DNA of 64,000 bases from Neobacillus sp. YX16. Its GTDB lineage: Bacteria; Bacillota; Bacilli; Bacillales; Cytobacillaceae. A program made the translations under genes and the position numbers. Under the pieces are notes generated by a model that had not been told where the DNA came from, searched no databases, and worked only from the letters and a program-made list of their open reading frames with translations. The stretch is from positions 2,556,001-2,620,000 of the forward strand of contig NZ_CP126115.1 of the NCBI RefSeq assembly GCF_030123505.1. The letters are read 5' to 3'. Positions within the stretch are counted from its first letter, which is position 1. Each line of letters opens with the position of its first letter. Positions 6,932 to 54,144 of this stretch are shown here, piece by piece.

Positions 6932-6950
6932 TTAACCTTCTAACTCAAAA

Positions 6951-13645: not shown

Positions 13646-13732
13646 TAAGATCGTTTTTGAAGAAATTTGTGAAAAATGATACATTTAAATTTTTATTCGA
13701 TATAATAGGTCTATCATAAAAATATTTAAAGA

Positions 13733-13936
13733 ATAGGTGCTTAAATCTTTTTCTTAAAGATTTTTAGCTTAAAAGGGAAGTTTGGTTAAATGCCAACGCG
13801 GTCCCGCCACTGTAAATGGGAGCAACCTACAATATGTCACTGTCAATTTGATGGGAAGACGTAGGAAGTCATGACCATGAGCCAGGAAACCTGCCTAATT
13901 CTTGTGCACCAAAAGACCTACGAGGATAGGGAGATG
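13733..13936 (+). promoter_or_regulatory. Cobalamin riboswitch
   Basis: Adenosylcobalamin-type aptamer. The conserved parts are AAAAGGGAAGTTTGGTTAAA, CCAACGCGGTCCCGCCACTG, the TGGGAGCA segment, and the B12 box ATGAGCCAGGAAACCTGCC near 13877-13895. The terminator at 13981 is its expression platform, and the cobalamin uptake and salvage genes follow directly. Confidence 0.96.
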
Positions 13937-31881: not shown

Positions 31882-31956
31882 CATCCGGTTCTGTCTGCAT
31901 AATATTATTTACGGGTTTTATGACTAAATTCTACTAATAAGGATGGAGTGAAAGGT

Positions 31957-33135
31957 ATGCATTTACGTCTGACAGATGAACAAAAAATGGTCCAAAAGAC
32001 AATTAGAAGATTTGTAGAAAAAGAATTGATTCCACTAGAAAATGAGGTATTGCGAAATGAAAGGGAAGGGAAACCAAGCCTTTCTAAAGAAGTACTAAAG
32101 GAGCTTCAATTAAAAGCAAAGGAAGCAGGTTTCTGGGGTATTAATACACCTGAAGAGTATGGTGGAGCTGATTTAGGGCAAATGATGATGGCGATTGTAT
32201 TAATGGAGGTTTCCAAAACGTTCGTTCCATTTAGCTTTGGTGGTTCTGCAGATAACATCCTTTATTATGGGAACGAAGAACAAAAGAAAAAATACCTACT
32301 GCCTACCATTAATGGCGAGAAAAAGTCATGCTTTGCCATGACAGAGCCTGGTGCTGGTTCTGATACGAGAAACATCAAGATGACAGCTGTAAAAGACGGC
32401 AGTGACTGGGTGTTAAATGGGGAGAAGACGTTTATAACCGGTGGGAATGAAGCGGATTTTGTTATGGCGATTGCGATTACAGATAAAAATCTGCACCAAT
32501 CTACTCAAGGGCGAGAAGGAGTTACCTGCTTTATTGTTGACAGGGATATGGGCTGGAAATCAGAGTATATACATACGATGGGTGAATGGGGTCCAGCCGG
32601 CCTAGTATTCGAAAATGTTCGAGTTCCGGAAGAGAATATTCTTGGTGAGTTACACAAGGGCTATAATCTTGGATTAGAATGGATTGGTTTTGCTAGATGG
32701 GTTGTCGGCGCAAGAGCGGTAGGTGCAGCAGAGAGACTATTACAGATGGCGATTGACTATTCAAAAGAGAGGATTACCTTTGGAAAACCGATTGCAGAAA
32801 GACAAGCGATTCAATGGCAAATTGCTGATTCAGCAGTAGAAATTGAAGCAGCTAAATGGTTGGTTTTAAATGCGGCCTTCACACTTGATAACGGTGAGGA
32901 TAATCGTCACTTAGCTTCAATGGCAAAGCTTTATGGTGCGAATATGGGAAACAAAGTGGTAGACCGTGTGCTTCAAATCCATGGGGGAATGGGCTATACA
33001 AGAGAACTGCCAATCGAGCGCTGGTACCGTGAAGCAAGACTTTGGAGAATTTACGATGGAACCGATGAAATTCAGCGAATGATTATTGCTAGGAATTTGA
33101 TTAAGGGACATGTTAAGGTTGGTCAATACGTATAA
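31957..33135 (+). CDS. Acyl-CoA dehydrogenase
   Basis: A 392-residue FAD enzyme that introduces a trans-2 double bond into an acyl-CoA. Signatures seen: FAMTEPGAGSDTRNIKM (FAD and substrate binding), WVLNGEKTFITGG, and the C-terminal QIHGGMGYTRELPIERWYREAR. At the usual catalytic-base position IYEGT the protein reads IYDGT (Asp367), as in some ACAD10/11-type members. ATG 31957 is preferred to the in-frame GTG 31948 because GGAG lies 8 bp before it. First gene of the operon driven by the O1 promoter. Confidence 0.93.
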   Translation: MHLRLTDEQKMVQKTIRRFVEKELIPLENEVLRNEREGKPSLSKEVLKELQLKAKEAGFWGINTPEEYGGADLGQMMMAIVLMEVSKTFVPFSFGGSADNILYYGNEEQKKKYLLPTINGEKKSCFAMTEPGAGSDTRNIKMTAVKDGSDWVLNGEKTFITGGNEADFVMAIAITDKNLHQSTQGREGVTCFIVDRDMGWKSEYIHTMGEWGPAGLVFENVRVPEENILGELHKGYNLGLEWIGFARWVVGARAVGAAERLLQMAIDYSKERITFGKPIAERQAIQWQIADSAVEIEAAKWLVLNAAFTLDNGEDNRHLASMAKLYGANMGNKVVDRVLQIHGGMGYTRELPIERWYREARLWRIYDGTDEIQRMIIARNLIKGHVKVGQYV

Positions 33136-33210: not shown

Positions 33211-33975
33211 ATGGCAGGTAGATTTACTGGAAGAGTGGCGTTTGTAACAGGAGGAAGCAGGGGGATTGGGAAAGGAATCGTTGAACGTTTTGCCGAGGAA
33301 GGCGCGAAGGTAGCGTTTATTGATTTAAATGAAGAGGCATTAGTAGAAACAACGAGTGAACTAAGAGAAAAAGGTTTTGAAGTTTTTTCAAAGGTCGCAA
33401 ACGTAGTTGATGCCGAGCAAGTAGAAAGTGCCTTTAAAGAGGCGTATGATGCACTTGGCTCGATTGATATTCTAGTAAATAATGCAGGCGTTATTCGTGA
33501 TAATCTTTTATTTAAAATGACAGACACTGACTGGCAAATGGTCATGGATGTTCACTTAAAAGGATCTTTTAATGCTGCACGTGCAGCTCAAAAGTATATG
33601 GTTGAAAATAAATATGGACGAATCATAAATATTTCATCCACCTCCGCTCTTGGCAATCGAGGTCAGGCAAATTACGCAGCCGCAAAAGCAGGATTACAGG
33701 GATTCACAAAAACACTTGCGATTGAGCTAGGAAGATATGGTATTACTTCAAACTCTGTTGCACCTGGGTTTATTGAAACGGAAATGACGAAGGAAACGGC
33801 GGATAGAATCGGAGTTCCATTTGAGCAATTAATTCAAGCGAGTGTAGCCAATATCCCTGTTGGAAGAAGTGGAAAGCCTGAAGATATTGCCAATGCGGTG
33901 GCATTCTTTGCCGATGAAAAATCTTCCTTTGTTAATGGTCAGGTAATTTATGTTGCTGGCGGACCGAAAAATTAA
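33211..33975 (+). CDS. SDR oxidoreductase, FabG-like
   Basis: A 254-residue classical SDR, probably a 3-hydroxyacyl-CoA dehydrogenase or 3-ketoacyl reductase in this context. Cofactor motif TGGSRGIGKG (residues 14-23), NNAGVIRDN, ISSTSALGNRGQANYAAAKAG with the catalytic Ser, Tyr and Lys, and VAPGFIETEMT. Asp at the end of beta-2 (FIDLNEE) favours NAD over NADP, hence an oxidative direction. GGGAGG site before the ATG. It follows the acyl-CoA dehydrogenase by 75 bp and precedes two hydratase genes. Confidence 0.88.
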   Translation: MAGRFTGRVAFVTGGSRGIGKGIVERFAEEGAKVAFIDLNEEALVETTSELREKGFEVFSKVANVVDAEQVESAFKEAYDALGSIDILVNNAGVIRDNLLFKMTDTDWQMVMDVHLKGSFNAARAAQKYMVENKYGRIINISSTSALGNRGQANYAAAKAGLQGFTKTLAIELGRYGITSNSVAPGFIETEMTKETADRIGVPFEQLIQASVANIPVGRSGKPEDIANAVAFFADEKSSFVNGQVIYVAGGPKN

Positions 33976-33999
33976 AAACTAAAGTGAGGCGAGGATAAA

Positions 34000-34449
34000 T
34001 TGTTCAGTGATCAAGTTGGGAAACGTTCCACGAAAGTAAAAAACGTAGTGGAAAGAGGAGCGGTGAAGAAATTTGCGGAAGCCATCGGAGATATTCACCC
34101 TATCTATTTTGAAGAAGAAACAGGGAGAAATTCAAGATTTCGAAACAATATTGCTCCGCCAACATTTCCGAGGACGTTTGACTATGGAGTAATTGAGGGA
34201 TTAAATCTTCCCAATAAAGGCTTAATCCACGGGGAACAGACTTTTCATTACGAACGGCCGTTATTGGTTGGTGAAGAGATTGTATGTTACTCCGAAGTAA
34301 AAAAATACTTTGAGAAAAAAGGTAATTTTGGTGAAATGGGTTTTCTTGTCCTAGAAAGCTTTGGTGAAGATTTAGCTGGTAATACTATTTTTAGTTCAAC
34401 CTCGACAGTGGTTATTACTGAAGCAGTGAGGAAGGTGCTTACAAAATGA
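34000..34449 (+). CDS. MaoC-like dehydratase, N-terminal type (FAS1-like)
   Basis: A 149-residue hot-dog-fold protein of the MaoC N-terminal type. KKFAEAIGDIHPIYFEE resembles the hydratase motif region but with altered catalytic residues; APPTFPRTFDYG and GLIHGEQTFHYERPLLVGEEI are the usual family blocks. Such subunits pair with a catalytic MaoC partner, here the next gene, to form an (R)-specific enoyl-CoA hydratase heterodimer, as in mycobacterial HadAB-like pairs. TTG start behind GCGAGG. The 4-bp overlap with the next gene supports equal expression. Confidence 0.85.
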   Translation: MFSDQVGKRSTKVKNVVERGAVKKFAEAIGDIHPIYFEEETGRNSRFRNNIAPPTFPRTFDYGVIEGLNLPNKGLIHGEQTFHYERPLLVGEEIVCYSEVKKYFEKKGNFGEMGFLVLESFGEDLAGNTIFSSTSTVVITEAVRKVLTK

Positions 34450-34847
34450 GTACTCTTACACAGTTACTAGTTGGTGAATCAGTAAAAGAAATTCAGTTAG
34501 AGCCTGTCTCAAGAATCGATTTGATTAAATATGCAGGTGCATCTGGAGATTTTAATCCGATTCATACCATTGATGAGGAAGCAAAAAAGGCTGGATTACC
34601 AGGAATAATCGCACATGGTATGTGGACGATGGGTAATCTTGCAAAGCTTTTTACACGATATTTTGAAGAGGGATTCGTCAAGGATTATTCCATCCGTTTT
34701 AAAGGAATGGTCTTTTTAAATGATGTGATTACACTGAAAGCTACCTTGAAGGAAGTAGATGAACCCAACCTTCGTTTCCATGTTCAGGCTGTAAACCAAA
34801 ATGGGAATGAAGTTTTAAAAGGTGAGATTTTGTTTACCCAATATTAA
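34446..34847 (+). CDS. MaoC-like enoyl-CoA hydratase, catalytic subunit
   Basis: A 133-residue hot-dog protein. The hydratase-2 motif is intact: YAGASGDFNPIHTIDEEAKKAGLPGIIAHGMW, in which Asp and His are the catalytic pair. It should hydrate trans-2-enoyl-CoA to (R)-3-hydroxyacyl-CoA together with the preceding subunit. It starts in an ATGA overlap. The stereochemistry differs from classical (S)-specific beta-oxidation, so the SDR of this operon rather than a FadB-type enzyme would do the following oxidation. Confidence 0.88.
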   Translation: MSTLTQLLVGESVKEIQLEPVSRIDLIKYAGASGDFNPIHTIDEEAKKAGLPGIIAHGMWTMGNLAKLFTRYFEEGFVKDYSIRFKGMVFLNDVITLKATLKEVDEPNLRFHVQAVNQNGNEVLKGEILFTQY

Positions 34848-36924: not shown

Positions 36925-37698
36925 ATGCATGTGAAGGAATTATTTGATTTAACAGGAAAAGTTGCGATTGTTACAGGCGGAGGCAGGGGGCTTGGTCAAC
37001 AAATTGCAGAGGGATATGCAGAAGCTGGTGCCAGTGTTGTGGTTTGTTCAAGAAAGTACGAAGCGTGTCAGGAAGTCAGTGAAGGGTTAAAGAAAATGGG
37101 TGTAGATAGCCTTGCATTAAAATGTGATGTAACCAATCCAGAAGATGTAAAGAAGGTGGTCGAAACCACTCTGGAAAGGTTTGGGAGGATTGACATCCTC
37201 GTAAATAATAGTGGTGCTACCTGGGGAGCACTGGTAGAAGAAATGCCGCTAGATGCATGGAAAAAGGTAATGGACGTCAATGTAACCGGTACCTTTCTCA
37301 TGTCACAGAGTGTGGGCAAAGCCATGCTCGAGCAAAAGTCTGGAAAAATCATTAATATTGCCTCTGTGGCTGGTCTCAAAGGCAGTAACCCAAAATATAT
37401 GAATACCATTGGCTACAATACCTCTAAAGGGGCGGTCATTACTTTTACAAAGGATTTAGCGGTTAAATGGGGACCACACGGAATCTATGTAAATGCAATT
37501 GCACCAGGTTTTTTCCCTACGAAAATGTCAAAAGGGCTGCTTGAGAATGGCAGCGAAGGAATTCTAGAAGGGACTCCATTACGTAAGTTCGGATCAGATA
37601 CTGACTTAAAAGGAGTTGCTTTATTCCTAGCGGCACCAGCTTCTAATTTTATTACAGGGGACATTATAGTTGTGGATGGCGGCGCCCACGCAATGTAG
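36925..37698 (+). CDS. SDR oxidoreductase
   Basis: A 257-residue classical SDR. TGGGRGLGQQ (residues 18-27), NNSGATWGALVEEM in place of the usual NNAG, IASVAGLKGS and YNTSKGAVITFTKDLAVKWG with catalytic Tyr and Lys, and NAIAPGFFPTKM. The SRK after beta-2 (VVVCSRKYE) suggests NADP. It resembles gluconate 5-dehydrogenase-like and 3-hydroxyacyl-type SDRs. First gene behind O2; a GGGAGGAAA site precedes the ATG. Confidence 0.87.
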   Translation: MHVKELFDLTGKVAIVTGGGRGLGQQIAEGYAEAGASVVVCSRKYEACQEVSEGLKKMGVDSLALKCDVTNPEDVKKVVETTLERFGRIDILVNNSGATWGALVEEMPLDAWKKVMDVNVTGTFLMSQSVGKAMLEQKSGKIINIASVAGLKGSNPKYMNTIGYNTSKGAVITFTKDLAVKWGPHGIYVNAIAPGFFPTKMSKGLLENGSEGILEGTPLRKFGSDTDLKGVALFLAAPASNFITGDIIVVDGGAHAM

Positions 37699-37733
37699 AT
37701 TGGAAATCAAATAGAGCCAAGGGGTGAAGTTAG

Positions 37734-38903
37734 ATGAAAAGAGATGCTGTAATCGTTTCAGCGGTTAGAACAGCTATTGGCAGGCAGGGTGGTGCCCTTG
37801 CTGCAATACCAGCACATGTTCTAGGTGCAGAGGTGATAAAAGAAGCAATAAAGCGTGCAAATATTGACCCTGAAATGATTGATGATGTCCTAATCGGAAA
37901 TGTTTTATCAGGTGGAGGAAATATTGCTAGATTAACAGCTTTGCAGACAGGATTATCGTTGAATCTGCCAGGTATAACGGTCGACCGCCAATGCGGGTCG
38001 GGTATTAATGCAATCAATCTAGCAGCTCAAGCCATTCGAGCAGGCGATGGGGATATTTATATTGCTGGTGGTACAGAGAGTATGAGCCGGGCGCCGTATT
38101 TGATGGATCGTCCTGAAAGGCCATACAGTGCTTCACCCCCTAGCTTTAGAAAATCACAGCTTTCACCAAAGGAAATTGGAGATCCTCCAATGGGAATCAC
38201 AGCTGAGAATCTCGTAGAAAAATATAAGATTACGAGAGAAGAACAAGACGAATTTGCCTTTCAGAGTCAACAAAGAATGAGTGTGGCAATGGAAGAGGGG
38301 CGCTTTGATGAACAAATCGTTCCAATTACAATACCGGTAAAAAAGGGTGAGCCACTAGTATTTAAGAAGGATGAACATCCACGTCCGCAAACAACCCTTG
38401 AGGCATTGTCGAAGCTTCAGCCTTCCTTTTTAAAAGATGGAACTGTAACAGCTGGAAATAGTTCTGGATTAAATGATGCTGCCGCCGCTCTCGTCATTAT
38501 GTCGAGAGAAAAAGCGGAAGAATTCAATCTAACCCCTTTAGCAGTTATTCGCTCCTATGCAGTAGCGGGTGTTGACCCGAATATTATGGGAATTGGACCA
38601 GTTCCAGCCGTGAAAAAGGTAATGGAGAAGTCCGGGTTAACATTAGAAGAGATTGATTTGATTGAAATCAATGAAGCCTTTGCGGCACAGGTTCTTGCTT
38701 GTAATCGTGAGCTTAACATGGATTTAGAAAAAGTAAATGTAAACGGCGGCGCAATTGCACACGGACATCCGCTTGGTGCTACAGGTGCTATTTTGGTAAC
38801 GAAAGCTGTTTATGAACTAAAACGAACGAATGGAAGATATGCCCTCATTACGGCTTGTATTGGCGGCGGTCAGGGAATTGCTGCCATAATTGAAAAAGAG
38901 TAA
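37734..38903 (+). CDS. Thiolase (acetyl-CoA C-acyltransferase)
   Basis: A 389-residue type II thiolase. The acyl-accepting Cys87 is in DRQCGSGINAI. The C-terminal catalytic parts are NEAFAAQVLA, NGGAIAHGHPLGATGA (His) and CIGGGQGIAAI (second Cys). It should cleave 3-ketoacyl-CoA to acetyl-CoA and a shortened acyl-CoA, closing the beta-oxidation steps of the first operon, though biosynthetic condensation is possible. GGGGTGAAG precedes the ATG. Confidence 0.93.
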   Translation: MKRDAVIVSAVRTAIGRQGGALAAIPAHVLGAEVIKEAIKRANIDPEMIDDVLIGNVLSGGGNIARLTALQTGLSLNLPGITVDRQCGSGINAINLAAQAIRAGDGDIYIAGGTESMSRAPYLMDRPERPYSASPPSFRKSQLSPKEIGDPPMGITAENLVEKYKITREEQDEFAFQSQQRMSVAMEEGRFDEQIVPITIPVKKGEPLVFKKDEHPRPQTTLEALSKLQPSFLKDGTVTAGNSSGLNDAAAALVIMSREKAEEFNLTPLAVIRSYAVAGVDPNIMGIGPVPAVKKVMEKSGLTLEEIDLIEINEAFAAQVLACNRELNMDLEKVNVNGGAIAHGHPLGATGAILVTKAVYELKRTNGRYALITACIGGGQGIAAIIEKE

Positions 38904-39049: not shown

Positions 39050-39913
39050 ATGGAGATATTGATTCAGCAATTGTTTAATGGGTTAACAATTGGAAGCGTT
39101 TACAGTCTAGTGGCTTTAGGATTAACGCTAGTTTATGGAATCCTTCACATTCCAAATTTTGCACATGGTGCATTATACATGATGGGTGGCTACATAACGT
39201 TAACCATGATGACTAAATACGGATTTCACTATTGGCTAGCAATTTTTATATCTATTTTGGTGGTTGGACTAATAGGCGTTCTAATGGAAAGGTTTGTTTT
39301 TCATCCTCTCAGAGAGGCACCACCCATTCATGATAAGATCGCTGCCATTGGTATTCTCTTATTCTTGGAAGCATTTGCTCAATTTGTCTGGGGAGCAGAA
39401 TATCAAAGCATGCCAACTCCGTATGGACAGGTTGTTGAAATCTTTGGATTAACCTTCACGATGCAGCGCTTGCTTATTGTCATTGCCGCAATTGTCGTCA
39501 TGATTCTTTTAACATTATTCTTGAAAAAAACCTTTACTGGTTCAACGATTATTGCCATGTCACAAAACCGTGAAGGAGCAAACCTTGTTGGAATTAACAC
39601 AAATAAAGTTGCCATGCTTACCTTCATGATTTCTGGTGGTTTAGCGGCAATAGCGGCTTCCTTGAGCGCGCCAATTAATCTAGTATTTCCAGGAATGGGA
39701 CATCTTGTTATTTTAAAAGCTTTTGTCATCATTATTCTTGGTGGGATGGGAAGTGTTCCTGGAGCAATTTTAGGCGGCTATATTTTAGGGTTTACTGAAA
39801 GCTTAGGGGCAACCTATATATCCAATGAATACAAGGACATTATAGCCTTTGTACTCCTTGTCATTATTCTATCAGTTAAGCCAACTGGTCTTTTCTCAAA
39901 GGGGGGCCACTAA
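39050..39913 (+). CDS. livH: Branched-chain-amino-acid-type ABC permease, LivH
   Basis: A 287-residue permease with about eight helices. It has FNGLTIGSVYSLVALGLTLVYG and PNFAHGALYMMG at the N terminus, and ILGGMGSVPGAILGGYILG, the cytoplasmic loop contacting the ATPase, near the end. GGAGGG site before the ATG. Although the family is named for branched-chain amino acids, many members import aromatic acids, amides, urea or short acids; the catabolic context suggests a carboxylate-like substrate. Confidence 0.92.
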   Translation: MEILIQQLFNGLTIGSVYSLVALGLTLVYGILHIPNFAHGALYMMGGYITLTMMTKYGFHYWLAIFISILVVGLIGVLMERFVFHPLREAPPIHDKIAAIGILLFLEAFAQFVWGAEYQSMPTPYGQVVEIFGLTFTMQRLLIVIAAIVVMILLTLFLKKTFTGSTIIAMSQNREGANLVGINTNKVAMLTFMISGGLAAIAASLSAPINLVFPGMGHLVILKAFVIIILGGMGSVPGAILGGYILGFTESLGATYISNEYKDIIAFVLLVIILSVKPTGLFSKGGH

Positions 39914-40914
39914 TGTCGAAGATTCAAAAAATTGTTATTCTCGTACTCATACTTTTTGCCATCGTCTTTCCTTTAATAAGCAAGAACGACTATTTCATTC
40001 ATATTATGACACTTTCCTTTATTTGGATGATTGGTGTTTATGGACTAAATCTTCTAGCAGGTTTTACCGGCTACCTATCCTTGGCACATGCTGGTTTCTT
40101 TGCCATAGGTGCCTATTCTCTTGGGTTGTTAACCGCTAAAGCAGAAATGAATTTCTGGCCGGCTCTTTTTTTATCACTCGTCATTACTGGTGTATTAGGG
40201 TTCTTTGCAGGTCTTATCTCACTAAGAACGAAGGAGCATTTTTTTGCAATTTACACACTTTGTGTTGGCTACATTATTTATCTTGTTATTGATAAATGGG
40301 ACAGCCTAACAGAGGGTGTACGTGGATTAATTGGTATTCCAGCACCAGCAAACATCGGACCTCTTTCTTTTGAGACACTTCATTCTCATTATTATTTAGT
40401 ATTGTTTTTCCTTCTACTAGTTGTTCTTATCATGTATCGAATCGTTCACTCCCTATCAGGCAGGACCTATATCGCCATACGCAATAGTGAAGATTTGGCA
40501 CAGACGATTGGGATTTCCACGATGAAAAATAAATTAACGGTCTTTGTTATTTCAACGGTTATTGCAGGTTTATCAGGGGCTCTTTATGCTTCATTTGTCC
40601 GTTTTATTGGACCTGATATTGGATCGATTGCTATTGTGTTTGATTTTCTTACCTATTTACTTGTAGGCGGGATTGGCACTCTAAGCGGTCCCATTGTTGG
40701 TACGCTGCTAATCGTCGTCCTTTCACAGCGTCTTCAGTTTTTACAGGATTACCGGATGCTCGTTTTCGGACCGGTGTTAACACTGTTGATTATTTTTTAT
40801 CCTCGGGGAATTGTTGGGGCAGTGGCTGCCTTTGGTCAGAAGCGCAGAGGACAGGTTCATAAATCAAACATCCAAGCAGCGAACCTGCCAGAAGAACAAG
40901 TAAAGGAGGGGTAA
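39913..40914 (+). CDS. livM: Branched-chain-amino-acid-type ABC permease, LivM
   Basis: A 333-residue second permease of the HAAT family with about nine helices. GLNLLAGFTGYLSLAHAGFFAIGAY is the family signature, and LVGGIGTLSGPIVGT is the coupling loop. It starts in a one-base TAATG overlap with livH, so the two are translated together. The last 30 residues are charged and cytoplasmic. Confidence 0.92.
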   Translation: MSKIQKIVILVLILFAIVFPLISKNDYFIHIMTLSFIWMIGVYGLNLLAGFTGYLSLAHAGFFAIGAYSLGLLTAKAEMNFWPALFLSLVITGVLGFFAGLISLRTKEHFFAIYTLCVGYIIYLVIDKWDSLTEGVRGLIGIPAPANIGPLSFETLHSHYYLVLFFLLLVVLIMYRIVHSLSGRTYIAIRNSEDLAQTIGISTMKNKLTVFVISTVIAGLSGALYASFVRFIGPDIGSIAIVFDFLTYLLVGGIGTLSGPIVGTLLIVVLSQRLQFLQDYRMLVFGPVLTLLIIFYPRGIVGAVAAFGQKRRGQVHKSNIQAANLPEEQVKEG

Positions 40915-40916
40915 GC

Positions 40917-41684
40917 ATGATATTTCTAGAAACGAAGAAGTTAACTAAAAATTTTGGTGGTTTAGTGGCTGTTAACAATGTTGACTTTGTGATTGAGCAA
41001 GGAAAGATAAATGCCATTATTGGTCCAAATGGTGCTGGGAAGTCTACCTTTTTTAACTTAATCAGCGGCTTTCATCCTCCAAGCTCAGGACAGGTTATCT
41101 TTAAAGGACAGGATGTTACCCATATACCTGCTAATAAAATAGCTCAGCTGGGGGTGGCAAGAACCTTCCAAACTACCAATCTATTCGAGCAATCAACGGT
41201 TTTAGATAATATTATTGTCGGTCATCGATTACGGACAAAGTCTAATTTGTTCGATGCGATTTTCCGTACAAAACGGCTTAAAACGGAGGAAGCCCTTTGT
41301 CGTGATAAAGCATTGGAGGTTATTGAATTTGTTGATTTGCAAAAGGCAGCGCATAAACCGGTTGCAGGCTTAACACAAGAAGAGAAAAAAAGGACAGCAT
41401 TTGCGCTTGCACTGGCGACTAATCCCGAAATTGTTTTTCTAGATGAACCAGCTGCCGGAGTCAACCCTGATGAAACAGAAGGCTTGGCAGATTTAATAAG
41501 AAAGATGGCAGATAAAGGAGTCACAGTTTGTCTAATTGAGCACAAAATGCAAATGATTATGAAGTTGGCAGACAAAATTATGGTGTTGAATTATGGTGAA
41601 AAGATTGCTGAGGGTAAACCAGCAGAAATTCAGAATAATGAAGCGGTGATAAAGGCTTATCTGGGAGGTAGTGCAATTGCTTAG
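40917..41684 (+). CDS. livG: HAAT-family ABC ATPase, LivG
   Basis: A 255-residue ATPase: Walker A GPNGAGKST, the Q-loop in VARTFQTTNLF, a signature that is unusual (LTQEEKKRTAFALAL in place of LSxGxQR), Walker B IVFLDEPAAGVNPDE, and switch His in LIEHKM. The weak signature motif suggests that the paired LivF carries the canonical site. AAAGGAGGGG precedes the ATG two bases after the livM stop. Confidence 0.9.
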   Translation: MIFLETKKLTKNFGGLVAVNNVDFVIEQGKINAIIGPNGAGKSTFFNLISGFHPPSSGQVIFKGQDVTHIPANKIAQLGVARTFQTTNLFEQSTVLDNIIVGHRLRTKSNLFDAIFRTKRLKTEEALCRDKALEVIEFVDLQKAAHKPVAGLTQEEKKRTAFALALATNPEIVFLDEPAAGVNPDETEGLADLIRKMADKGVTVCLIEHKMQMIMKLADKIMVLNYGEKIAEGKPAEIQNNEAVIKAYLGGSAIA

Positions 41685-42384
41685 TTTGAAAAATATCTCT
41701 GTCAAATATGGAGGCTTTACAGCTGTTCATGACATAAATATCGAAGTAAGTGAAGGAGAAATTGTTGTTTTATTAGGTTCAAATGGTGCAGGCAAAAGCA
41801 CCACCTTTCGAACAATCAGCGGTTTATCTAAGCCTTCAAAAGGTGAGGTTTTTTTTGAAGGTAAATCCTTAAACAAGGTTTCAGCCGATAGAATTGTTCA
41901 ATTAGGGATTGGGCAATGTCCGGAGGGAAGGAAGCTTTTCCCGGCAATGACGGTTCAGGAAAACCTGAAGATGGGGGCTTTTGTTCATAGAAGGAAGAAA
42001 GACGAAATAAAAAAATCCTTGGAGCATGTGTATGAACTATTTCCTATTCTCCGTGATAAGAATGACGATGCTGCCGGATCCTTAAGTGGTGGACAGCAGC
42101 AAATGTTAGCTATCGGCAGGGCTCTAATGTCAAAACCAAAGCTGATGCTGCTTGATGAACCGTCAGTAGGACTTGCTCCGTTAATTGTGGAGCAAATGTT
42201 TGAGGTCATTCAGCAAATAAATCGGGAGGGGACAACGATACTGTTGGCTGAACAAAATGCCAACGCAGCCTTAAAAATAGCAGATAAAGGCTATGTTTAT
42301 GAAAATGGCTCTATTGTCCTTCAAGGATCTTCAGAAGAGTTATTTGCAAATGATGAGGTTAGGAAGGCGTACATAGGAGCTTAG
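41677..42384 (+). CDS. livF: HAAT-family ABC ATPase, LivF
   Basis: A 235-residue ATPase: Walker A GSNGAGKST, IGQCPEGRKLFPAMTVQENL, canonical signature LSGGQQQMLAIGRAL, Walker B LMLLDEPSVGLAP, and switch region LLAEQNANAAL. I place the start at TTG 41677, 8 bp after GGGAGG (41663-41668); the GTG at 41671 is too close to that site. It overlaps livG by 8 bp. Confidence 0.91.
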   Translation: MLSLKNISVKYGGFTAVHDINIEVSEGEIVVLLGSNGAGKSTTFRTISGLSKPSKGEVFFEGKSLNKVSADRIVQLGIGQCPEGRKLFPAMTVQENLKMGAFVHRRKKDEIKKSLEHVYELFPILRDKNDDAAGSLSGGQQQMLAIGRALMSKPKLMLLDEPSVGLAPLIVEQMFEVIQQINREGTTILLAEQNANAALKIADKGYVYENGSIVLQGSSEELFANDEVRKAYIGA

Positions 42385-42468
42385 AATTGTAGGTCATCTA
42401 AGGGGGTGATGTTCACATTCACCATGTTTTGCGACTGAAAATTCAATGAAAATACGAGGGGGAAAACC

Positions 42469-43677
42469 ATGAAAAAAATGAAGTGGCTTTTTATATTCAG
42501 TATGATATTCGTATTAATTTTCAGCTTAGCAGCCTGCAATAGTTCTTCCAGTACATCAGGGAAAAATGATGATAAAGAAGATGATAATAAGAGTGGAGAA
42601 GTAGGAACTGTGAACATTGGGTATACAGGACCTTTAAGCGGACCTGCTGCCTTTTATGGTGAGCGTACCTTAAATGGTGTGAAAATGGCAGCCGATGAAG
42701 TAAATGCTGCCGGCGGTTTTGAGGTCAATGGCAAGAAGTACAAGTTAAATGTCGTTTCCTTAGACGATAAATACCTGCCAAATGAAGCGGGAGCCAATGC
42801 AAAGAGATTGGTTCAGGAAAATAAACCACCGATTATATTTACTCCTCACAGTGGTGGGATTTTCGCTCTACAAGTATTTAATCAGTTGGATAAATTTATT
42901 ATTGGCGCATATTCTAGTGAACCGAAAATTACAGAGGTAGGTAATAAGTTAACCGTTCGAATACCGCCTCGTTATGATGGATATTTACAGCCATTTACAG
43001 AGTATGCAATGGATAACTTTGGTAAGAACGTTGCCTTTCTGCCAACTGCTTCTCAATATGGTAAGGACTGGTCAGCTAACTTAAAGAAATACTGGGAAAA
43101 AGAAGGCGGAAAGGTTGTTTACGATTCTGCAATTGACTTTTCAAAGGAAACAGATTTCTTCACCATATTAACGAATGCTCTAAAAGAAAAGCCAGATGTA
43201 TTATTTATCGGTGGAGCATCTGAACCTACAGCGAAGGTAGCAAAGCAAGCTCGTGAGCTCGGCTTCAAAGGCGGTTTCATCGTTATGGATCAAGCGAAAT
43301 TTGATGAAATGAAGGCAGTAACAGGTTCTTATGATTTATTGAATGGCTCAATTGGAGTAATGCCGCTTGTTGATTCTCAAGAGGCTGCGATACCTGATTT
43401 TGTGAAACGGTACAATGAAAAATACGGTGAGAATCCTGGTTCTGAAGCGGGACTAAATTATATTGGCATGCATGTGTTTGTTGAGGCAATGAAAGCTGCT
43501 GGTTCAGTGGATGATGTTGAAAAAATACGAGCTAAAATGCAAGCTGGTTTGGAAAATTTGCCAGAGGATAAAAAAATCTATGTTGTAGAAAAAATTGGTG
43601 ATGATGGCGGATTTGAATTTGATTTGTCAGTCGCTGCTGTAGAAGACGGAAAAATAGTTCCAATTAAAGTAGATTAA
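42469..43677 (+). CDS. livJ: HAAT-family substrate-binding lipoprotein
   Basis: A 402-residue periplasmic-binding-fold protein (Peripla_BP_6 type) anchored as a lipoprotein: signal ending LAAC (Cys23), Ser/Asp/Lys-rich linker (25-48), then VNIGYTGPLSGPAAFYGERTLNG and two lobes. Sequence motifs do not name the ligand; LivJ-type proteins bind amino acids, but also aromatic acids and amides. It is the last gene of the O2 operon and completes the transporter. Confidence 0.9.
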   Translation: MKKMKWLFIFSMIFVLIFSLAACNSSSSTSGKNDDKEDDNKSGEVGTVNIGYTGPLSGPAAFYGERTLNGVKMAADEVNAAGGFEVNGKKYKLNVVSLDDKYLPNEAGANAKRLVQENKPPIIFTPHSGGIFALQVFNQLDKFIIGAYSSEPKITEVGNKLTVRIPPRYDGYLQPFTEYAMDNFGKNVAFLPTASQYGKDWSANLKKYWEKEGGKVVYDSAIDFSKETDFFTILTNALKEKPDVLFIGGASEPTAKVAKQARELGFKGGFIVMDQAKFDEMKAVTGSYDLLNGSIGVMPLVDSQEAAIPDFVKRYNEKYGENPGSEAGLNYIGMHVFVEAMKAAGSVDDVEKIRAKMQAGLENLPEDKKIYVVEKIGDDGGFEFDLSVAAVEDGKIVPIKVD

Positions 43678-43718: not shown

Positions 43719-43748
43719 CCCTCTTGTGTTTAGTAGGACACAAGGGGG
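43719..43748. repeat. Hairpin after livJ
   Basis: CCCTCTTGTGT pairs with ACACAAGGGGG (one G-T pair) over 8 nt. No T-run follows on either strand, so termination is uncertain. Confidence 0.45.
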
Positions 43749-43843: not shown

Positions 43844-44051
43844 TATAAGTGACCGTAAGCGATAAAAAATCGTGGAAGTAGTAACTAATAGGGGGTATAA
43901 GTGACCGCAAGCGCTGAAAAATCGTGGAAGTGGTAACTAATAAGGGCTATAAGTGACCGTAAGCGCTAAAAAATCGTGGAAGTGGTAACTAATAGGGGGT
44001 ATAAGTGACCGCAAGCGCTGAAAAATTGAAAAAGTGGTAACCAATAGACTA
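43844..44051. repeat. Four tandem copies of a 52-bp repeat
   Basis: Units start with TATAAGTGACCG at 43844, 43896, 43948 and 44000 and are all 52 bp. Units 1 and 3 share GACCGTAAGCG, and units 2 and 4 share GACCGCAAGCGCTG, so a 104-bp pair was duplicated. Each unit contains AATCGTGGAAGT (changed in unit 4) and GTAAC(T/C)AATA. It fills most of the 497-bp gap between livJ and the acyl-CoA ligase gene, where no gene is seen. The same period and similar ends occur at 7010-7113 in opposite orientation. Confidence 0.85.
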
Positions 44052-44174: not shown

Positions 44175-45692
44175 ATGAGGCTTAGTGATTTGCTTGAAAC
44201 AAACATTAGTCAGTTTGGTGAGTATCCTTTTCTACATTTTAAAGAAAAGCAATATACAAACATTGAATGTAAGATGTTTGCTGACAAATTCGCAAGCGGG
44301 CTCACCAAGTATGGTATAGATGTGGGTGATAGAGTCATCGTTTGTATGCCAAACTGTCCAGAAGTTATTTTTGCTTATCAAGGGATAACTAGAGCAGGCG
44401 CTATTATTGTACCAGTTATGTTTACCCTCCATCCAAAAGAACTGCATTATATTGCATTGAATTCTGGAGCAAAAGCAGTAATTACCTCTTCAAATATTCT
44501 AGGAAATGTAGAGAAGGCACTTGAGGGGTTACCTCTTCAACCATTAGTTGTCGTAGTAGATCAGCCTTCATGTGAACGAAGGTTAAACTTTTATGATGTT
44601 AAGGGTGAGGAGACATTTGTTCCTGGTAGTGAGCGGAAGGAGGATGATACAGCTGTTATTCTTTACACATCTGGTACCACAGGAAATCCAAAAGGTGTTT
44701 TGTTAACGCATAAAAATTTAACGAGTAACGCTCAAAATTCAGTCAAGCATAATGAACTTGAAAGGGGAACAACCATTGGCGTTCTGCCGCTTGCACATGT
44801 CTATGGGCTGACCATCTCCAATATTTGCCTTTTAATGGGGAGTTCAATAGTTACTTTTTCCAAATTTGACACGGAATCAATATTTAAAGCAATCGAGAAA
44901 TATGAAGTGAAAACTTTTTCGGCAGTGCCGTCGATGATTCATGCTTTAGTTTCCTATTCTGATGCAGACCAATTTAATAGCTCAAGTCTCGAATCAGTTA
45001 GTTCAGGTTCAGCACCGCTCCCTGTCTCTCTACTGCATGCTTTTGAAAAAAAGTTTGGTGCCAAGGTTTATGAAGGCTACGGTTTATCGGAGGCTGCACC
45101 TATAGTAACGGCTCATAAAGTTGGTATTGAAATAAAACCTGGCTCAGTCGGAATTCCAATACCGGGAGTGGAGGTGAAAATTGTCGATGACAATGGAGTC
45201 GAGGTGGCATGTGGTGTGGTAGGTGAGCTTTGTGTCCGCGGTGAAAACGTGACACCAGGATATTATCAAAATGTGGAAGAATCAAGGCGTGTCCTGATTG
45301 ATTCCTGGTTACATACAGGTGATATGGCACGAATGGATGATGAGGGGTATGTCTACATTGTTGATCGCAAAAAGGACTTAATTATTCGTGGTGGATTTAA
45401 TGTCTATCCACGGGATGTCGAAGAGATTTTGAACGCTCATGCAACTGTTTCGGAAGTCGCAGTGGTAGGCATTCCTGATGAAAAGATGGGAGAAGAAATG
45501 GTCGCCTGTGTTGTGGTAAAACAGGAGGCAATTGTAAGTGAAGAGGAATTAATAGCTTATTGTCAGGAGCATCTAGCAAAAAACAAAACTCCACGAAGAA
45601 TTGTTTTTCTTGAATCCCTGCCACGGAACGGTGTTGGAAAAATATTAAAAACTCATTTGAGAAAATCCGTGGCAGAAATAGAGATAAAGTAA
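44175..45692 (+). CDS. Acyl-CoA synthetase (AMP-forming)
   Basis: A 505-residue ANL-superfamily ligase that activates a carboxylic acid to its CoA thioester. P-loop ILYTSGTTGNPKGV, YEGYGLSEAAPI, the hinge region HTGDMARMDDEGYVYIVDRKKDLI and the C-terminal catalytic lysine in NGVGKILK are all present. The start is ATG 44175 after AAAGGAG. Length suits a medium- or long-chain fatty acid or aryl acid ligase. It is the first gene of a four-gene run with R2lox, aldehyde dehydrogenase and alcohol dehydrogenase. Confidence 0.92.
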   Translation: MRLSDLLETNISQFGEYPFLHFKEKQYTNIECKMFADKFASGLTKYGIDVGDRVIVCMPNCPEVIFAYQGITRAGAIIVPVMFTLHPKELHYIALNSGAKAVITSSNILGNVEKALEGLPLQPLVVVVDQPSCERRLNFYDVKGEETFVPGSERKEDDTAVILYTSGTTGNPKGVLLTHKNLTSNAQNSVKHNELERGTTIGVLPLAHVYGLTISNICLLMGSSIVTFSKFDTESIFKAIEKYEVKTFSAVPSMIHALVSYSDADQFNSSSLESVSSGSAPLPVSLLHAFEKKFGAKVYEGYGLSEAAPIVTAHKVGIEIKPGSVGIPIPGVEVKIVDDNGVEVACGVVGELCVRGENVTPGYYQNVEESRRVLIDSWLHTGDMARMDDEGYVYIVDRKKDLIIRGGFNVYPRDVEEILNAHATVSEVAVVGIPDEKMGEEMVACVVVKQEAIVSEEELIAYCQEHLAKNKTPRRIVFLESLPRNGVGKILKTHLRKSVAEIEIK

Positions 45693-45711
45693 AGTTACTA
45701 GGAGGTCAAAA

Positions 45712-46605
45712 ATGGCAGAGAGAAAAATATTAACGACAAGTAAAAGAGGTTTATTGGAGGATTCATTCCCGTTTCGTTTATATCAAAAGGCGAAAAGATT
45801 AGGAACCTGGAATCCAGCAGATATTGATTTTAGTCAGGATGCTAGAGACTGGAAAACCCTCAATTATGAACAAAAGGAAGATATTCTACGCTTAATTTCA
45901 CAGTTTCAAGCTGGGGAAGAAGCAGTAACGCTGGATTTACTCCCGCTTATCATGGCGATTGCAAAAGAAGGACGTCTTGAAGAAGAAATGTTCTTAACTA
46001 CTTTCTTATATGAAGAAGCAAAGCATACAGAATTTTTTCGGCTTGTACTGAATGCCCTCGGCGAAAGAGGGGACTTGTCCCATTTCCATACAGAGACATA
46101 TAAAAAAATCTTCTATGAAATCCTTCCAACCACGATGGAACGTCTTGTGACGGACCAATCTCCAGAAGCCATTGCAGAAGCCTCCGTTGTCTATAACATG
46201 TTTGTTGAAGGTGTCTTAGCAGAAACAGGTTATTATTCTTTTTACCAAGCGTTAGAAACTGCTAATATCATGCCTGGTCTTTTAGAAGGCATCGGGAATT
46301 TGAAAAAGGATGAGTCCCGGCATATTGGCTATGGCACCTTCCTGCTTCAACGATTAATTTGTGAACACCCTCATCTCTTTGATTTTGTTGCGGCGAAAAT
46401 GACTGAACTTACTCCTTTGTCTCTTAGATTAAATGAGGAAGGGATAGCAGGAAGGGAGGTAAGTGCATTCGGCGGTGATCCAGCATTGGTCATGGATTTT
46501 ACGCTTAAACAGCTGTCAGTAAGGATGGAAATTCTAGCACGAGCAAAAGGCAAAAAAATCGAAGAGATTTATAGATTCTCAGAAAGTGAATTAGGGGTTT
46601 TATAA
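45712..46605 (+). CDS. R2-like ligand-binding oxidase (R2lox), Mn/Fe type
   Basis: A 297-residue ferritin-fold oxidase, related to the ribonucleotide reductase R2 subunit but acting alone. All six metal ligands of Geobacillus R2lox are found: Glu69, Glu102 and His105 (EEAKHTEFF), Glu166, Glu201 and His204 (DESRHIGYG). The residues that form the tyrosine-valine ether cross-link are present as Val72 and Tyr161 (VVYNMFVEG). The radical-storing R2 Tyr is not expected. The cofactor activates O2 next to a bound fatty acid; the natural substrate is unknown. AGGAGG before the ATG, 19 bp after the ligase stop. Confidence 0.93.
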   Translation: MAERKILTTSKRGLLEDSFPFRLYQKAKRLGTWNPADIDFSQDARDWKTLNYEQKEDILRLISQFQAGEEAVTLDLLPLIMAIAKEGRLEEEMFLTTFLYEEAKHTEFFRLVLNALGERGDLSHFHTETYKKIFYEILPTTMERLVTDQSPEAIAEASVVYNMFVEGVLAETGYYSFYQALETANIMPGLLEGIGNLKKDESRHIGYGTFLLQRLICEHPHLFDFVAAKMTELTPLSLRLNEEGIAGREVSAFGGDPALVMDFTLKQLSVRMEILARAKGKKIEEIYRFSESELGVL

Positions 46606-46621
46606 AAAGGAGGAATAAAAA

Positions 46622-48145
46622 ATGGCAGTAAAAGTTGAAGTTCAAAGTTTTCCGCTTTTTATTAATGGAAAGTGGGAACCTGCAAGCAATCAAGAAACCT
46701 TTGATGTCTTTAACCCTGCAACAGGAGAGTTAGTAGCGAAAGTAGCTAAAGGCACCGTGGCGGATGTTGATACTGCAGTTATGGCGGCAAGGGAGGCGTT
46801 TGATAACACCGAATGGAAAAACATGAACCCGAAAGACCGGGCTAAAGTTTTATATGCCATTTCTTATCAAATTGCAGAGCATGCCGAAGAGCTAGCCTAT
46901 TTAGAAGCGATTAGTTCAGGCGGTACCGTACGCCGAATTGGAAACAGTGATATTTTACAAATGGTCGACCTTTTCCAAACATTGGCGAACTTTACATTAG
47001 AATATCCATTCTCTGAAACCTTGCCAGTACCGCCATTTCCAGGTCCGGCACATAATTTTATCTGGCGTGAGCCAATTGGAGTCTGTGCAGCAATAACACC
47101 GTGGAATCTACCGATGGTCATTGCAACCTGGAAAATCGCCCCTGCATTAGCAATGGGAAATACAGTGGTCATTAAGCCTGCAAGCTATACGCCATTATCC
47201 ACCTTAAAGCTGGCTGAATTGATTTCAAAGGTTGTCCCACCTGGAGTCATTAACGTAGTAACAGGTCCTGGGGCTGAAATTGGCGAAGCATTAGTTCGTC
47301 ATCCAAAGGTTGACAAGGTAGCATTCACTGGTTCTACAGAAATAGGCAGGAGAATCATGAGTTTGGCTTCTGAAAGTATTAAAAATACAACCTTAGAGCT
47401 TGGAGGAAAATCACCAAACATTCTTTTAGAGGATGCAGACCTCAGCATTGCCCTTCCGGGAAGTCTCTTTGGAGTGTTCTTACATTCTGGTCAGCTATGT
47501 GAAAGTGGAACTCGTTTATTTGTTCCAGATTCCTTATATGATCAAGTTGTTGCCGGACTTGTCGGATTAACAAGTAAGTTGAAGCTCGGAAACCCACTAG
47601 ATCCTGCGACGGACGTAGGTCCTGTCATTTCAAAAAAGCAAAAAGAAACCATCCTTTCATACATTGAGGCTGGTAAACAAGAAGGAGCCACCCTTGTCTG
47701 CGGTGGGAAAGAAGTGAAAGTAGCTGGCTGCGAGGATGGATACTTTGTTGAACCCACCATTTTCACCAATGTGACCAATGATATGAAAATTGCTCAGGAA
47801 GAAATTTTTGGACCTGTATTATGTGTAATCCGTTATTCCGAATTAGACGAAGCCATTAAGATGGCCAATGATAGTATTTATGGATTGGCAGCTGGTGTTT
47901 GGACGCGTGATGTCAATAAAGCGTATGAGGTTGCAAGGAAATTGCAGGCTGGTGTCGTTTGGATTAATGACTGGCATATGCTTAGAAGCGATGCTCCATT
48001 TGGCGGATATAAGCAGAGCGGCATTGGCAGAGAAATGGGTCAGCAATCATTAGACGCCTATACACAAACAAAGCATGTTCACACATCGATGGCTCCAGAG
48101 CTTGAGAAACGCAACTGGTATGGAATTCTATTTGGCCAAAACTAA
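46622..48145 (+). CDS. NAD(P)-dependent aldehyde dehydrogenase
   Basis: A 507-residue ALDH-superfamily enzyme oxidising an aldehyde to its acid. [19 protein letters not shown], the glutamate in LELGGKSPN, and catalytic Cys293 in [13 protein letters not shown] are present; [13 protein letters not shown] follows. Substrate specificity is not visible. It follows R2lox by 16 bp with AAAGGAGG and is followed closely by the alcohol dehydrogenase, which suggests a consecutive alcohol to aldehyde to acid route feeding the acyl-CoA ligase. Confidence 0.93.
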
Positions 48146-48164
48146 TGAAGAGGTGAAGAAGATA

Positions 48165-49373
48165 ATGAAAACTTCCTTATCACAGTTTATGCTTCGCACT
48201 GGAATATACAGTGGTTCGAATTCACGGGCAATGGTACCTAGCTTGTTTGCTGGACTAGGTGCGAAAAGAGTCGTTCTTTTAAGTGACAGAGGGTTAGAAA
48301 AAGCAGGTGTTGTTGAAAAGGTTGCAGAAATCTTTAACTTAACGGGTCATGGCAGCGGTCCACAGCTGGTCGGTCAATATCTTGATATTACGCAGGATGC
48401 AGAAAGCCGCTGTATTAATGATGCAGTCCGTTATGTAAAAGAGGTAGGCGGAGATGCCCTGCTAGCAGTTGGCGGAGGTAGTGTTTTAGATACTGTTAAA
48501 GGTGTTAAATATGCACTTCATAAAGGATTATCGGATATTAAGGAAGCAATTCCTGGAGGGCTTTTATACGAACAATTTCCAAAGGCAAACTTTATCCCGA
48601 TTCCACATATAGCGATTCCGACTACAGCGGGAACAGGGTCTGAAGTTTCTCCAATTGCAGTTATTTTCAATGAAGATATCCAAATGAAGACAAATATTAT
48701 TAACCCATTCATTAATGCGGATATGGCAATTCTTGATCCTGAATTAACACTTGGTCTGCCGCCTTTTATCACGGCCTTTACTGGGTTTGACGCCTTAACC
48801 CATGCCATTGAAGCATTTGCGTCGCCGACAGCGACTGCTCTGACTGATGCCTATGCACTGCATGCAATTAGGTTAATTGGAAAAAATCTTCCAGTGGCAG
48901 TGTCAGAAGGAACGAATATCGCTGCTCGGATGGATTTACTGCAGGCAAGCTTAATGGGTATTACTGCTTTTAGCTTTGCTTTGAATGCTATTCCAGTGCA
49001 TAATTTGGCCCACGCCTATGGTGCATTGTTCCGGATTCCACATGGTTTGGCCAATGCTGTTTTCCTTCCAGTGGTCATGGAAATGGTTCCTTCATTATAC
49101 CTGCCAAAAGTGAATGAACTTGCTGCGGCCTTGGATGTCGAGGTGAAAGGTGATAGTGATGAAACGGCATTAGCCAAAGTAGTAGAAAAGATTCGTTTAT
49201 TGCAGCATAAAGTCGGTCTTCCTGCTGATTTTAAGCAGTTTAATATCACCGAAGAAAATCTTGAACAGACGATTCCTGCGGTGATGAAAGATCCAGCAGC
49301 ACTAAGCTTCCCAATGCCTAAAGAATTGATTTTAGCAATTGGACAAAGAGTTGTACCACTTGCTGTGAAATAA
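48165..49373 (+). CDS. Iron-containing alcohol dehydrogenase (group III)
   Basis: A 402-residue metal-dependent alcohol dehydrogenase. GGGSVLDTVKGVKYAL (NAD binding), IPTTAGTGSEVSPIAVI, and the metal-binding histidines in FDALTHAIEAF and HNLAHAYGALFRIPHG are visible. ATG 48165 is placed behind AGAGGTGAAG; a longer in-frame reading would overlap the ALDH gene with no site. Last gene of the ligase-R2lox-ALDH-ADH run, with a strong terminator after it. Confidence 0.92.
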   Translation: MKTSLSQFMLRTGIYSGSNSRAMVPSLFAGLGAKRVVLLSDRGLEKAGVVEKVAEIFNLTGHGSGPQLVGQYLDITQDAESRCINDAVRYVKEVGGDALLAVGGGSVLDTVKGVKYALHKGLSDIKEAIPGGLLYEQFPKANFIPIPHIAIPTTAGTGSEVSPIAVIFNEDIQMKTNIINPFINADMAILDPELTLGLPPFITAFTGFDALTHAIEAFASPTATALTDAYALHAIRLIGKNLPVAVSEGTNIAARMDLLQASLMGITAFSFALNAIPVHNLAHAYGALFRIPHGLANAVFLPVVMEMVPSLYLPKVNELAAALDVEVKGDSDETALAKVVEKIRLLQHKVGLPADFKQFNITEENLEQTIPAVMKDPAALSFPMPKELILAIGQRVVPLAVK

Positions 49374-49389: not shown

Positions 49390-49427
49390 AAGCTAGTGGC
49401 GAAGAAGCTACTAGCTTTTTATTTTTT
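49390..49427 (+). terminator. Terminator of the ligase-R2lox operon
   Basis: AAGCTAGTGGC pairs with GCTACTAGCTT (one G-T pair) over a 6-nt loop, followed by TTTATTTTTT. Confidence 0.88.
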
Positions 49428-53971: not shown

Positions 53972-54144
53972 TAGATTGATAACAAGTTCACAAAATCTAT
54001 AAAATTGTAAGATAAAAACACAAACTCTATCAAAAACAATTCAAAGGTAACCATAATCATCGAAAATTTTCATGACGAAGAGCAGGCATATGAGTTATAA
54101 TGTTTACTATTAGAAGTAGTAAGAAAACCGGAGGCGATAAATTT

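What the first reader, a model, noticed from the sequence alone, without database searches (positions are those of the whole stretch)
44175..49373. R2lox in an operon with acyl-CoA ligase, aldehyde and alcohol dehydrogenases
R2lox has a known Mn/Fe cofactor and a bound fatty-acid-like ligand but no known physiological substrate. All metal ligands and the cross-link Val72/Tyr161 are kept here. Direct coupling (16-20 bp spacers) with enzymes for alcohol to aldehyde to acid to acyl-CoA suggests R2lox performs the first oxygenation of a hydrophobic compound.
Basis: partly seen in the sequence, partly recalled or inferred. Interest (0 to 1): 0.72.

Follow-up and report, generated by a model that had tools for sequence, protein, structure and literature searches.

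The report
Mn/Fe oxidase gene in alcohol-degrading operon
A bacterial oxygen-using enzyme of debated function sits in what looks like an operon with three enzymes that turn an alcohol into metabolic fuel, which suggests that it makes that alcohol; a 2024 paper already proposed this for a distant relative, so this is a solid new example rather than a discovery.

Summary
In detail: ligase, R2lox, ALDH and iron-type ADH lie head to tail at 44175-49373 with 19, 16 and 19 bp spacers. R2lox keeps six metal ligands, Val72/Tyr161 and tunnel Ala170. The premise is dated: PMC10867098 (2024) reported such a cluster around GkR2loxI and claimed alkane monooxygenase activity, on thin data. The window gene lies in another R2lox clade, 47% identical. 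Of 64 Bacilli loci, 51 have an Fe-ADH, 47 an ALDH and 44 a ligase nearby; 30 control stretches have 0, 1 and 2. Other clades use a non-homologous zinc ADH. In the genus, 9 of 9 paralogous ligase-ALDH-ADH cassettes carry an alkylsulfatase, an alcohol-releasing enzyme. Best reading: R2lox makes the alcohol that feeds this cassette; its substrate is unknown, alkane being one option. Against generality: 14 of 15 loci from other phyla show none of these partners, and 10 of 17 R2loxI-clade loci lack the ADH/ALDH pair. New member of a known kind.

The parts
44175..45692 (+). acyl-CoA ligase (AMP-binding + C-terminal domain, 505 aa)
   Evidence: best PDB matches are 4-coumarate:CoA and fatty acyl-CoA ligases
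45712..46605 (+). R2lox, R2-like ligand-binding oxidase (297 aa), NF006202 type
   Evidence: residues; tree
46622..48145 (+). aldehyde dehydrogenase (507 aa)
   Evidence: tree
48165..49373 (+). iron-type alcohol dehydrogenase (402 aa)
   Evidence: tree
49390..49417 (+). intrinsic-terminator-like hairpin after the ADH
31948..33135 (+). acyl-CoA dehydrogenase, found near R2lox in many Bacilli loci
33211..34847 (+). SDR (33211-33975) and two MaoC-type hydratase halves (34000-34449, 34446-34847), often in one block with the acyl-CoA dehydrogenase
36925..38903 (+). second SDR (36925-37698) and thiolase (37734-38903)
39050..43677 (+). branched-chain-amino-acid-type ABC importer; accessory, binding-protein family in 16 of 63 loci
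   Evidence: 39050-39913 permease, 42469-43677 binding protein; the second permease and the two ATPases are named from their look, not scanned; spread

Best explanation
The four genes form one unit for burning a reduced carbon compound. R2lox, with an O2-activating Mn/Fe (or Fe/Fe) centre at the end of a hydrophobic tunnel, hydroxylates a C-H bond to give an alcohol (inferred). The Fe-ADH oxidises the alcohol to an aldehyde, the ALDH oxidises that to an acid, and the ligase makes the acyl-CoA (inferred from family membership). The acyl-CoA then enters nearby beta-oxidation genes (acyl-CoA dehydrogenase, MaoC pair, SDR, thiolase; inferred). Shown here: gene order, spacing, residue conservation, conservation of the association across genera, and exchange of the enzymes around the alcohol step. 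Not shown: transcription, activity, substrate, electron donor.
For: (1) Spacers of 19, 16 and 19 bp, no terminator-like site in the junctions. (2) Metal, cross-link and tunnel residues kept (meaning of A171 from PMC6399176 passages). (3) Same strand within 6 kb, 64 Bacilli loci: Fe-ADH 51, ALDH 47, ligase 44, Fe-ADH+ALDH 44, all three 33, none of the partners 7; 30 control stretches, either strand: Fe-ADH 0, ALDH 1, ligase 2, one of them with ALDH plus a zinc ADH. Order-wide, 20 loci that I picked for genus spread: Fe-ADH 14, ALDH 14, ligase 5. (4) The ADH step stays while the enzyme changes: NDMA-type zinc ADH on 4 of 4 actinobacterial plasmids opened, 3 with ferredoxin and an FAD reductase; zinc ADH + SCP2 + ALDH, either strand, in 7 of 17 R2loxI-clade loci; ALDH and Fe-ADH in 9 of 9 R2loxII-clade loci, of a separate lineage in the 7 of them that were put in the tree. 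(5) In the genus, 9 of 9 genomes with the ALDH paralogue (E 1e-200 or better) have ligase-ALDH-Fe-ADH followed by an alkylsulfatase as the next detected gene; this enzyme class cleaves alkyl sulfates such as SDS (PMC5426288, start of abstract in listing), so it frees alcohols. The ALDH and ADH of these cassettes fall in the same wide group as R2lox-linked ones.
Against: No activity or transcript data. A ferredoxin-reductase-type gene was matched near R2lox in only 1 of 63 genome-contig loci and 1 of 20 order-wide loci, which are the same species' gene, although a monooxygenase needs electrons. 14 of 15 loci from other phyla show no ADH, ALDH or ligase match within 6 kb (five of these contigs are under 9 kb; ORFs around four were listed, not annotated). 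10 of 17 R2loxI-clade loci lack the ADH+ALDH pair; most of these lie beside beta-oxidation genes, and one (L166) is cut by its contig end. Two haloarchaeal plasmids show no such set. In the genus, of 40 genomes with full-length R2lox 3 lack the Fe-ADH, 8 the ALDH and 7 the ligase; 7 keep the Fe-ADH and 4 the ALDH without R2lox. Known R2lox structures bind a fatty acid that coordinates the metals (PMC6399176), which does not point simply to an alkane.
Confidence: 0.6

Rival explanations
1. R2lox here is an n-alkane monooxygenase, as claimed for GkR2loxI; alkanes are the substrate.
For: PMC10867098 reports C10-C24 alkane loss by G. kaustophilus, alkane loss with crude recombinant GkR2loxI, and a similar cluster. 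The own genome has two members of the FA_desaturase superfamily, which includes AlkB, not resolved further; LadA and CYP153 were not searched.
Against: The window protein is 47% identical to GkR2loxI and lies in another clade. The paper measured alkane loss in crude lysate and found the double ligand mutant only 'slightly' weaker. A solute-type ABC importer beside the operon is odd for alkane use (inference).
Confidence: 0.25
2. R2lox hydroxylates an acid or fatty-acid-like compound taken up by the cell, and ADH and ALDH turn the hydroxyl into a second carboxyl before CoA activation.
For: R2lox structures hold a long-chain fatty acid at the metals (PMC6399176); a solute importer and acyl-CoA genes lie next door.
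Against: In those structures the fatty acid head group, not the chain end, is at the metals; the importer's binding protein is in only 16 of 63 loci.
Confidence: 0.2
3. R2lox acts beside the pathway, not in it (on an aldehyde, or as a protective or metal-dependent accessory), and the neighbourhood reflects shared regulation only.
For: Fe-ADH persists where only 3' pieces of R2lox are left (G043, G019, G030); R2lox stands without these partners in 14 of 15 loci of other phyla.
Against: The partner function rather than the partner gene recurs across clades; the alkylsulfatase cassettes suggest that the slot is an alcohol source. Two R2lox proteins showed no aldehyde-deformylating activity (as told in PMC10867098).
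Confidence: 0.15

Closest known systems
GkR2loxI (GK2771) cluster, Geobacillus kaustophilus HTA426 (PMC10867098)
   Same: R2lox with ALDH, ADH, ligase and beta-oxidation genes; same metal and cross-link residues
   Different: 47% identity and a different clade; in locus L171, whose R2lox is 99% identical to GkR2loxI, the ADH is zinc-type with an SCP2 gene, not Fe-ADH
GkR2loxII (GKP26) on pHTA426 and its clade
   Same: ALDH and Fe-ADH in 9 of 9 loci, adenylate-forming ligase in 6 of 9
   Different: 26% identity to the window R2lox; separate ALDH/ADH lineages; UbiD decarboxylase in 8 of 9 loci
Alkylsulfatase-ligase-ALDH-Fe-ADH cassette of the same genus (L118, L134, L196-L202)
   Same: paralogous ligase, ALDH (63-65%) and Fe-ADH (51-54%)
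   Different: an alkylsulfatase and no R2lox
Rhodococcus plasmid R2lox clusters (pROB01, pRB11, pR8L1)
   Same: R2lox with an ADH in 3 of 3, and an ALDH in 3 of 3 (in pR8L1 about 8 kb away); ligase in the 2 stretches that reach far enough
   Different: NDMA-type zinc ADH, ferredoxin and FAD reductase, SCP2, and in two of the stretches MCE import genes

Membership tests
R2-like ligand-binding oxidase (R2lox) | match above curated model cut-off | tested here: met
   NF006202 338 bits, cut-off 315
R2-like ligand-binding oxidase (R2lox) | six metal ligands (4 Glu, 2 His) | tested here: met
   E69, E102, H105, E166, E201, H204
R2-like ligand-binding oxidase (R2lox) | Val and Tyr of the ether cross-link | tested here: met
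   V72, Y161; V in 144 and Y in 146 of 146 rows
R2-like ligand-binding oxidase (R2lox) | Ala lining the ligand tunnel where RNR R2 has Phe | tested here: met
   A170; Ala in 146 of 146 rows; the genome's own R2-type protein reads F there in a pairwise alignment
R2-like ligand-binding oxidase (R2lox) | Mn/Fe cofactor, cross-link formed, bound fatty acid | not testable with these tools
   needs purified protein
Ribonucleotide reductase small subunit R2 | tunnel Phe; large-subunit gene as partner | tested here: not met
   Ala170; none of the 15 neighbouring genes scanned with Pfam between 31948 and 50246 is a large subunit; a separate R2-type gene lies at 2356980 in the genome
R2loxI group (GkR2loxI, reported alkane monooxygenase) | falls in the GkR2loxI clade | tested here: not met
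   separate branch (quick tree, SH-aLRT only); 47% identity
R2loxI group (GkR2loxI, reported alkane monooxygenase) | alkane hydroxylation | not testable with these tools
   no assay possible

The most novel reading that the evidence does not exclude
R2lox is an alcohol-making hydroxylase used as an interchangeable front end: bacteria couple it repeatedly and independently to whatever ADH/ALDH/ligase set they have (Fe-ADH here, zinc ADH in R2loxI and actinobacterial clusters, a second Fe-ADH lineage plus UbiD in R2loxII), and the same Bacilli cassette accepts either R2lox or an alkylsulfatase as its alcohol source.
Probability: 0.4. Interest if true: 0.65.

Novelty: new member of a known kind. 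Interest (0 to 1): 0.48.

Why it matters
R2lox has well-studied chemistry but a disputed job. The exchange patterns found here (ADH class differing between clades; an alkylsulfatase in place of R2lox beside paralogues of the same three enzymes) point to an alcohol product more firmly than one cluster does. They also give a mesophilic operon in which the substrate can be sought by deletion and metabolite analysis.

Tried and rejected
RNR small subunit: rejected on tunnel residue, family model and context. Chance neighbourhood: rejected by control stretches, which are 30 coordinates picked by hand and counted on either strand, whereas R2lox loci were counted on the same strand. 'R2lox always travels with the dehydrogenases': rejected by the genus profile and other phyla. 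A known regulatory RNA in front of the operon: Rfam lists none there at gathering score; a 13-pair hairpin at 43719-43748 after the binding-protein gene may end the importer unit. A promoter-like site on the + strand between 43678 and 44175: none found, so the start of transcription is unknown. Structure prediction was not run, because 47% identity to a solved R2lox already fixes the fold.

Limits: partners were found by tblastn with fixed seed proteins (E 1e-10, over 30% of the query), so other enzyme classes were missed. The 64 Bacilli loci are the best-matching ones, many from one genus, so they are not independent; one is titled Chryseobacterium (L067). The order-wide 20 were picked from the rows, and one of them (L138) is a 3-kb contig. 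Of 35 plasmid records with a match I opened 7. The tree used 111 of 146 rows (short, broken and near-identical rows dropped), is a quick tree, and warns of long branches; the trees are also quick and midpoint-rooted. The genus table was typed by hand, counts only high-identity rows, and sets aside G045 (R2lox split, with in-frame stops); its Fisher values ignore shared ancestry. Searches scored only part of the first-look candidates in some genomes. In one search my residue numbering was off by one (corrected); L096, a Bacillus, was counted among other phyla (corrected); my extraction of the genome's R2 protein took the large subunit (replaced).
Full report
WHAT IS THERE. The window lies in a one-contig genome of 6.23 Mb; the nearest named loci are from Bacillus sp. 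7884-1 (R2lox 99%) and Neobacillus niacini (98%). Four genes run head to tail on the + strand: acyl-CoA ligase 44175-45692, R2lox 45712-46605, ALDH 46622-48145, Fe-ADH 48165-49373, with spacers of 19, 16 and 19 bp. A terminator-like hairpin follows the ADH and none lies in the junctions, though the total count of such sites is not above shuffles. Upstream on the same strand are an acyl-CoA dehydrogenase, an SDR, two MaoC-type halves, a class II aldolase, a ketopantoate-reductase-like protein, a second SDR, a thiolase and a branched-chain-type ABC importer.

THE PROTEIN. R2lox passes the curated cut-off of NF006202. Its best solved relatives are GkR2loxI structures (4HR0 and variants), at 47% identity. 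The metal ligands and the Val/Tyr pair are E69, E102, H105, E166, E201, H204, V72 and Y161; over 146 aligned rows each of these is kept in 144 to 146. The tunnel alanine is Ala in 146 of 146. PMC6399176 (passages) states that this Ala is conserved in R2lox and is Phe in RNR R2 proteins; the genome's own R2-type protein shows F there in a pairwise alignment. A quick tree (111 rows) places the window gene in a Bacilli group apart from the GkR2loxI and GkR2loxII clades. Genome G545 holds both a GkR2loxI-type gene (L171, 99%) and a window-type gene (L147, 69%); it is probably Geobacillus thermocatenulatus, because L147's R2lox is identical to that of L081 and the contig lengths agree.

SPREAD. A full-length relative at 74% or more is in 40 of 61 genus genomes (G045 with a split gene not counted). 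R2lox-like matches at E 1e-15 or better, of all types, are in 73 of 397 order genomes; NF006202 is over its cut-off in 7 of 398 phylum genomes.

CONSERVATION OF THE NEIGHBOURHOOD. A scan of one genome per species gave 79 loci (best 80 of 395 relatives). Of 64 Bacilli loci among them (R2lox 55-99% identical), 51 have an Fe-ADH, 47 an ALDH, 44 a ligase, 44 both dehydrogenases, 33 all three and 7 none of the partners, same strand and within 6 kb. In 20 order-wide loci that I picked for genus spread, the counts are Fe-ADH 14, ALDH 14, ligase 5. In 30 control stretches from the same and related genomes, either strand: Fe-ADH 0, ALDH 1, ligase 2; one control has an ALDH with a zinc ADH. Median gaps, estimated from match ends in the genome-contig loci, are 31 bp (ligase-R2lox, n=38, 12-385), 35.5 bp (R2lox-ALDH, n=42, 15-738) and 20 bp (ALDH-ADH, n=43, 16-404). 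The acyl-CoA dehydrogenase/SDR/MaoC block is nearby in many loci, but on different sides of the operon in different genera.

EXCHANGE OF PARTNERS. (i) R2loxI clade, 17 loci (L127, L161-L175, L183): 7 have a zinc-type ADH, an SCP2 protein and an ALDH, either strand; 10 lack the pair, most of them beside beta-oxidation genes, and L166 is cut by its contig end. (ii) R2loxII clade, 9 loci (L111, L129, L176-L180, L184, L185): ALDH and Fe-ADH in 9, UbiD decarboxylase in 8 (not L129), ligase in 6; the 7 ALDH/ADH pairs put in the trees form a separate lineage. (iii) Actinobacterial plasmids, 4 opened: NDMA-type ADH in 4, FAD reductase and ferredoxin in 3, ligase in 3, ALDH in 3. (iv) A further clade at 52-56% identity (L156-L160): ligase 4, Fe-ADH 3, ALDH 3 of 5; L130 and L131: ALDH and a distant zinc ADH in 2 of 2; the L128/L181/L182 type: ligase and acyl-CoA dehydrogenase in 2 of 3, no ADH+ALDH pair. 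(v) Haloarchaeal plasmids, 2 opened: no such set, apart from two ligase-like genes on the opposite strand in one. (vi) Other phyla: 14 of 15 loci show no ADH, ALDH or ligase match; five contigs are under 9 kb.

THE ALKYLSULFATASE CASSETTE. The genome carries a second ligase-ALDH-Fe-ADH set at about 2.15 Mb. Next to it is a 645-aa protein with alkylsulfatase dimerisation and C-terminal domains. In all 9 genus genomes in which one search lists this ALDH paralogue, the alkylsulfatase is the next detected gene after the ADH; L203, fetched for a more distant Fe-ADH, has neither. The ALDH and ADH of this cassette fall in the same wide group as R2lox-linked ones, with branching order unresolved for ALDH. 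Alkylsulfatases of this type hydrolyse primary alkyl sulfates such as SDS (PMC5426288, start of abstract as listed), so they release alcohols. The parallel suggests that R2lox fills the same slot as an alcohol source. This is inference from position, not a demonstrated reaction.

LOSS PATTERNS. Among 60 genus genomes (G045 set aside), R2lox and ligase occur together in 33, R2lox without ligase in 7, ligase without R2lox in 1, neither in 19. For Fe-ADH the figures are 37, 3, 7, 13; for ALDH 32, 8, 4, 16. Pieces of the 3' end of R2lox remain in place in G043, G019 and G030, next to an intact Fe-ADH. So the dehydrogenases can be kept without R2lox, as expected if it is a substrate-specific entry step; looser ties fit as well.

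PRIOR ART. PMC10867098 (parts 1 to 3 of 4 read, and passages) described the GkR2loxI cluster with ALDH, ADH, ligase and beta-oxidation genes, noted ADH, ALDH and a CoA ligase near GkR2loxII, and claimed alkane hydroxylation by GkR2loxI. Activity was measured as loss of alkane in crude lysate; the authors write that the double metal-ligand mutant was 'slightly, but apparently, decreased'. Searches for R2lox with gene cluster and aldehyde dehydrogenase, for R2-like with ADH, monooxygenase, plasmid and ferredoxin, and for pairs among R2lox, UbiD, alkyl sulfatase, NDMA-ADH and sterol carrier protein returned no other paper on these associations in this open-licence library. FEBS Lett 2022 (Diamanti et al.) is not held and may contain related context.

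VERDICT. The wider survey strengthens the alcohol-source reading but leaves substrate and electron donor open.

Noticed in passing
L118:6966-13746 (own genome, about 2.152-2.159 Mb); L134, L196-L202: Paralogous ligase-ALDH-Fe-ADH cassette followed by an alkylsulfatase in 9 of 9 genomes; in L118 an MFS gene, small genes and a hydrolase-fold gene follow that look like polyester (PHA) synthesis genes (that last reading is from memory).
   Followed up: partly
L111, L176-L180, L184, L185: GkR2loxII-type R2lox with ALDH, Fe-ADH and a UbiD-family decarboxylase in 8 of 9 loci of the clade; the substrate may be aromatic (guess).
   Followed up: partly
window 43844-44047: Four 52-bp tandem repeats just upstream of the ligase; one further weaker match elsewhere in the genome and no exact match in 223 fetched loci.
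   Followed up: partly
PDB chain 9ldl_C: The best solved match of both the ALDH and the Fe-ADH is one 886-aa chain: the ALDH matches residues 2-486 and the ADH residues 504-866, a natural ALDH-ADH fusion.
   Followed up: no
L112-L114, L117, L127, L161, L162, L164, L167, L168, L170, L171, L175: An SCP2 (sterol-carrier-like) gene recurs beside R2lox in two clades, and the alkylsulfatase also ends in an SCP2-like domain.
   Followed up: no
window 54100-57498: 1132-aa ORF with many near-identical internal repeats beside motility and chemotaxis-type genes; looks like a flagellar hook-length protein (from memory, not scanned).
   Followed up: no
window 11004-11148, 13718-13912 and 6608-6979: FMN riboswitch, cobalamin riboswitch and cspA thermoregulator above gathering score.
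   Followed up: no
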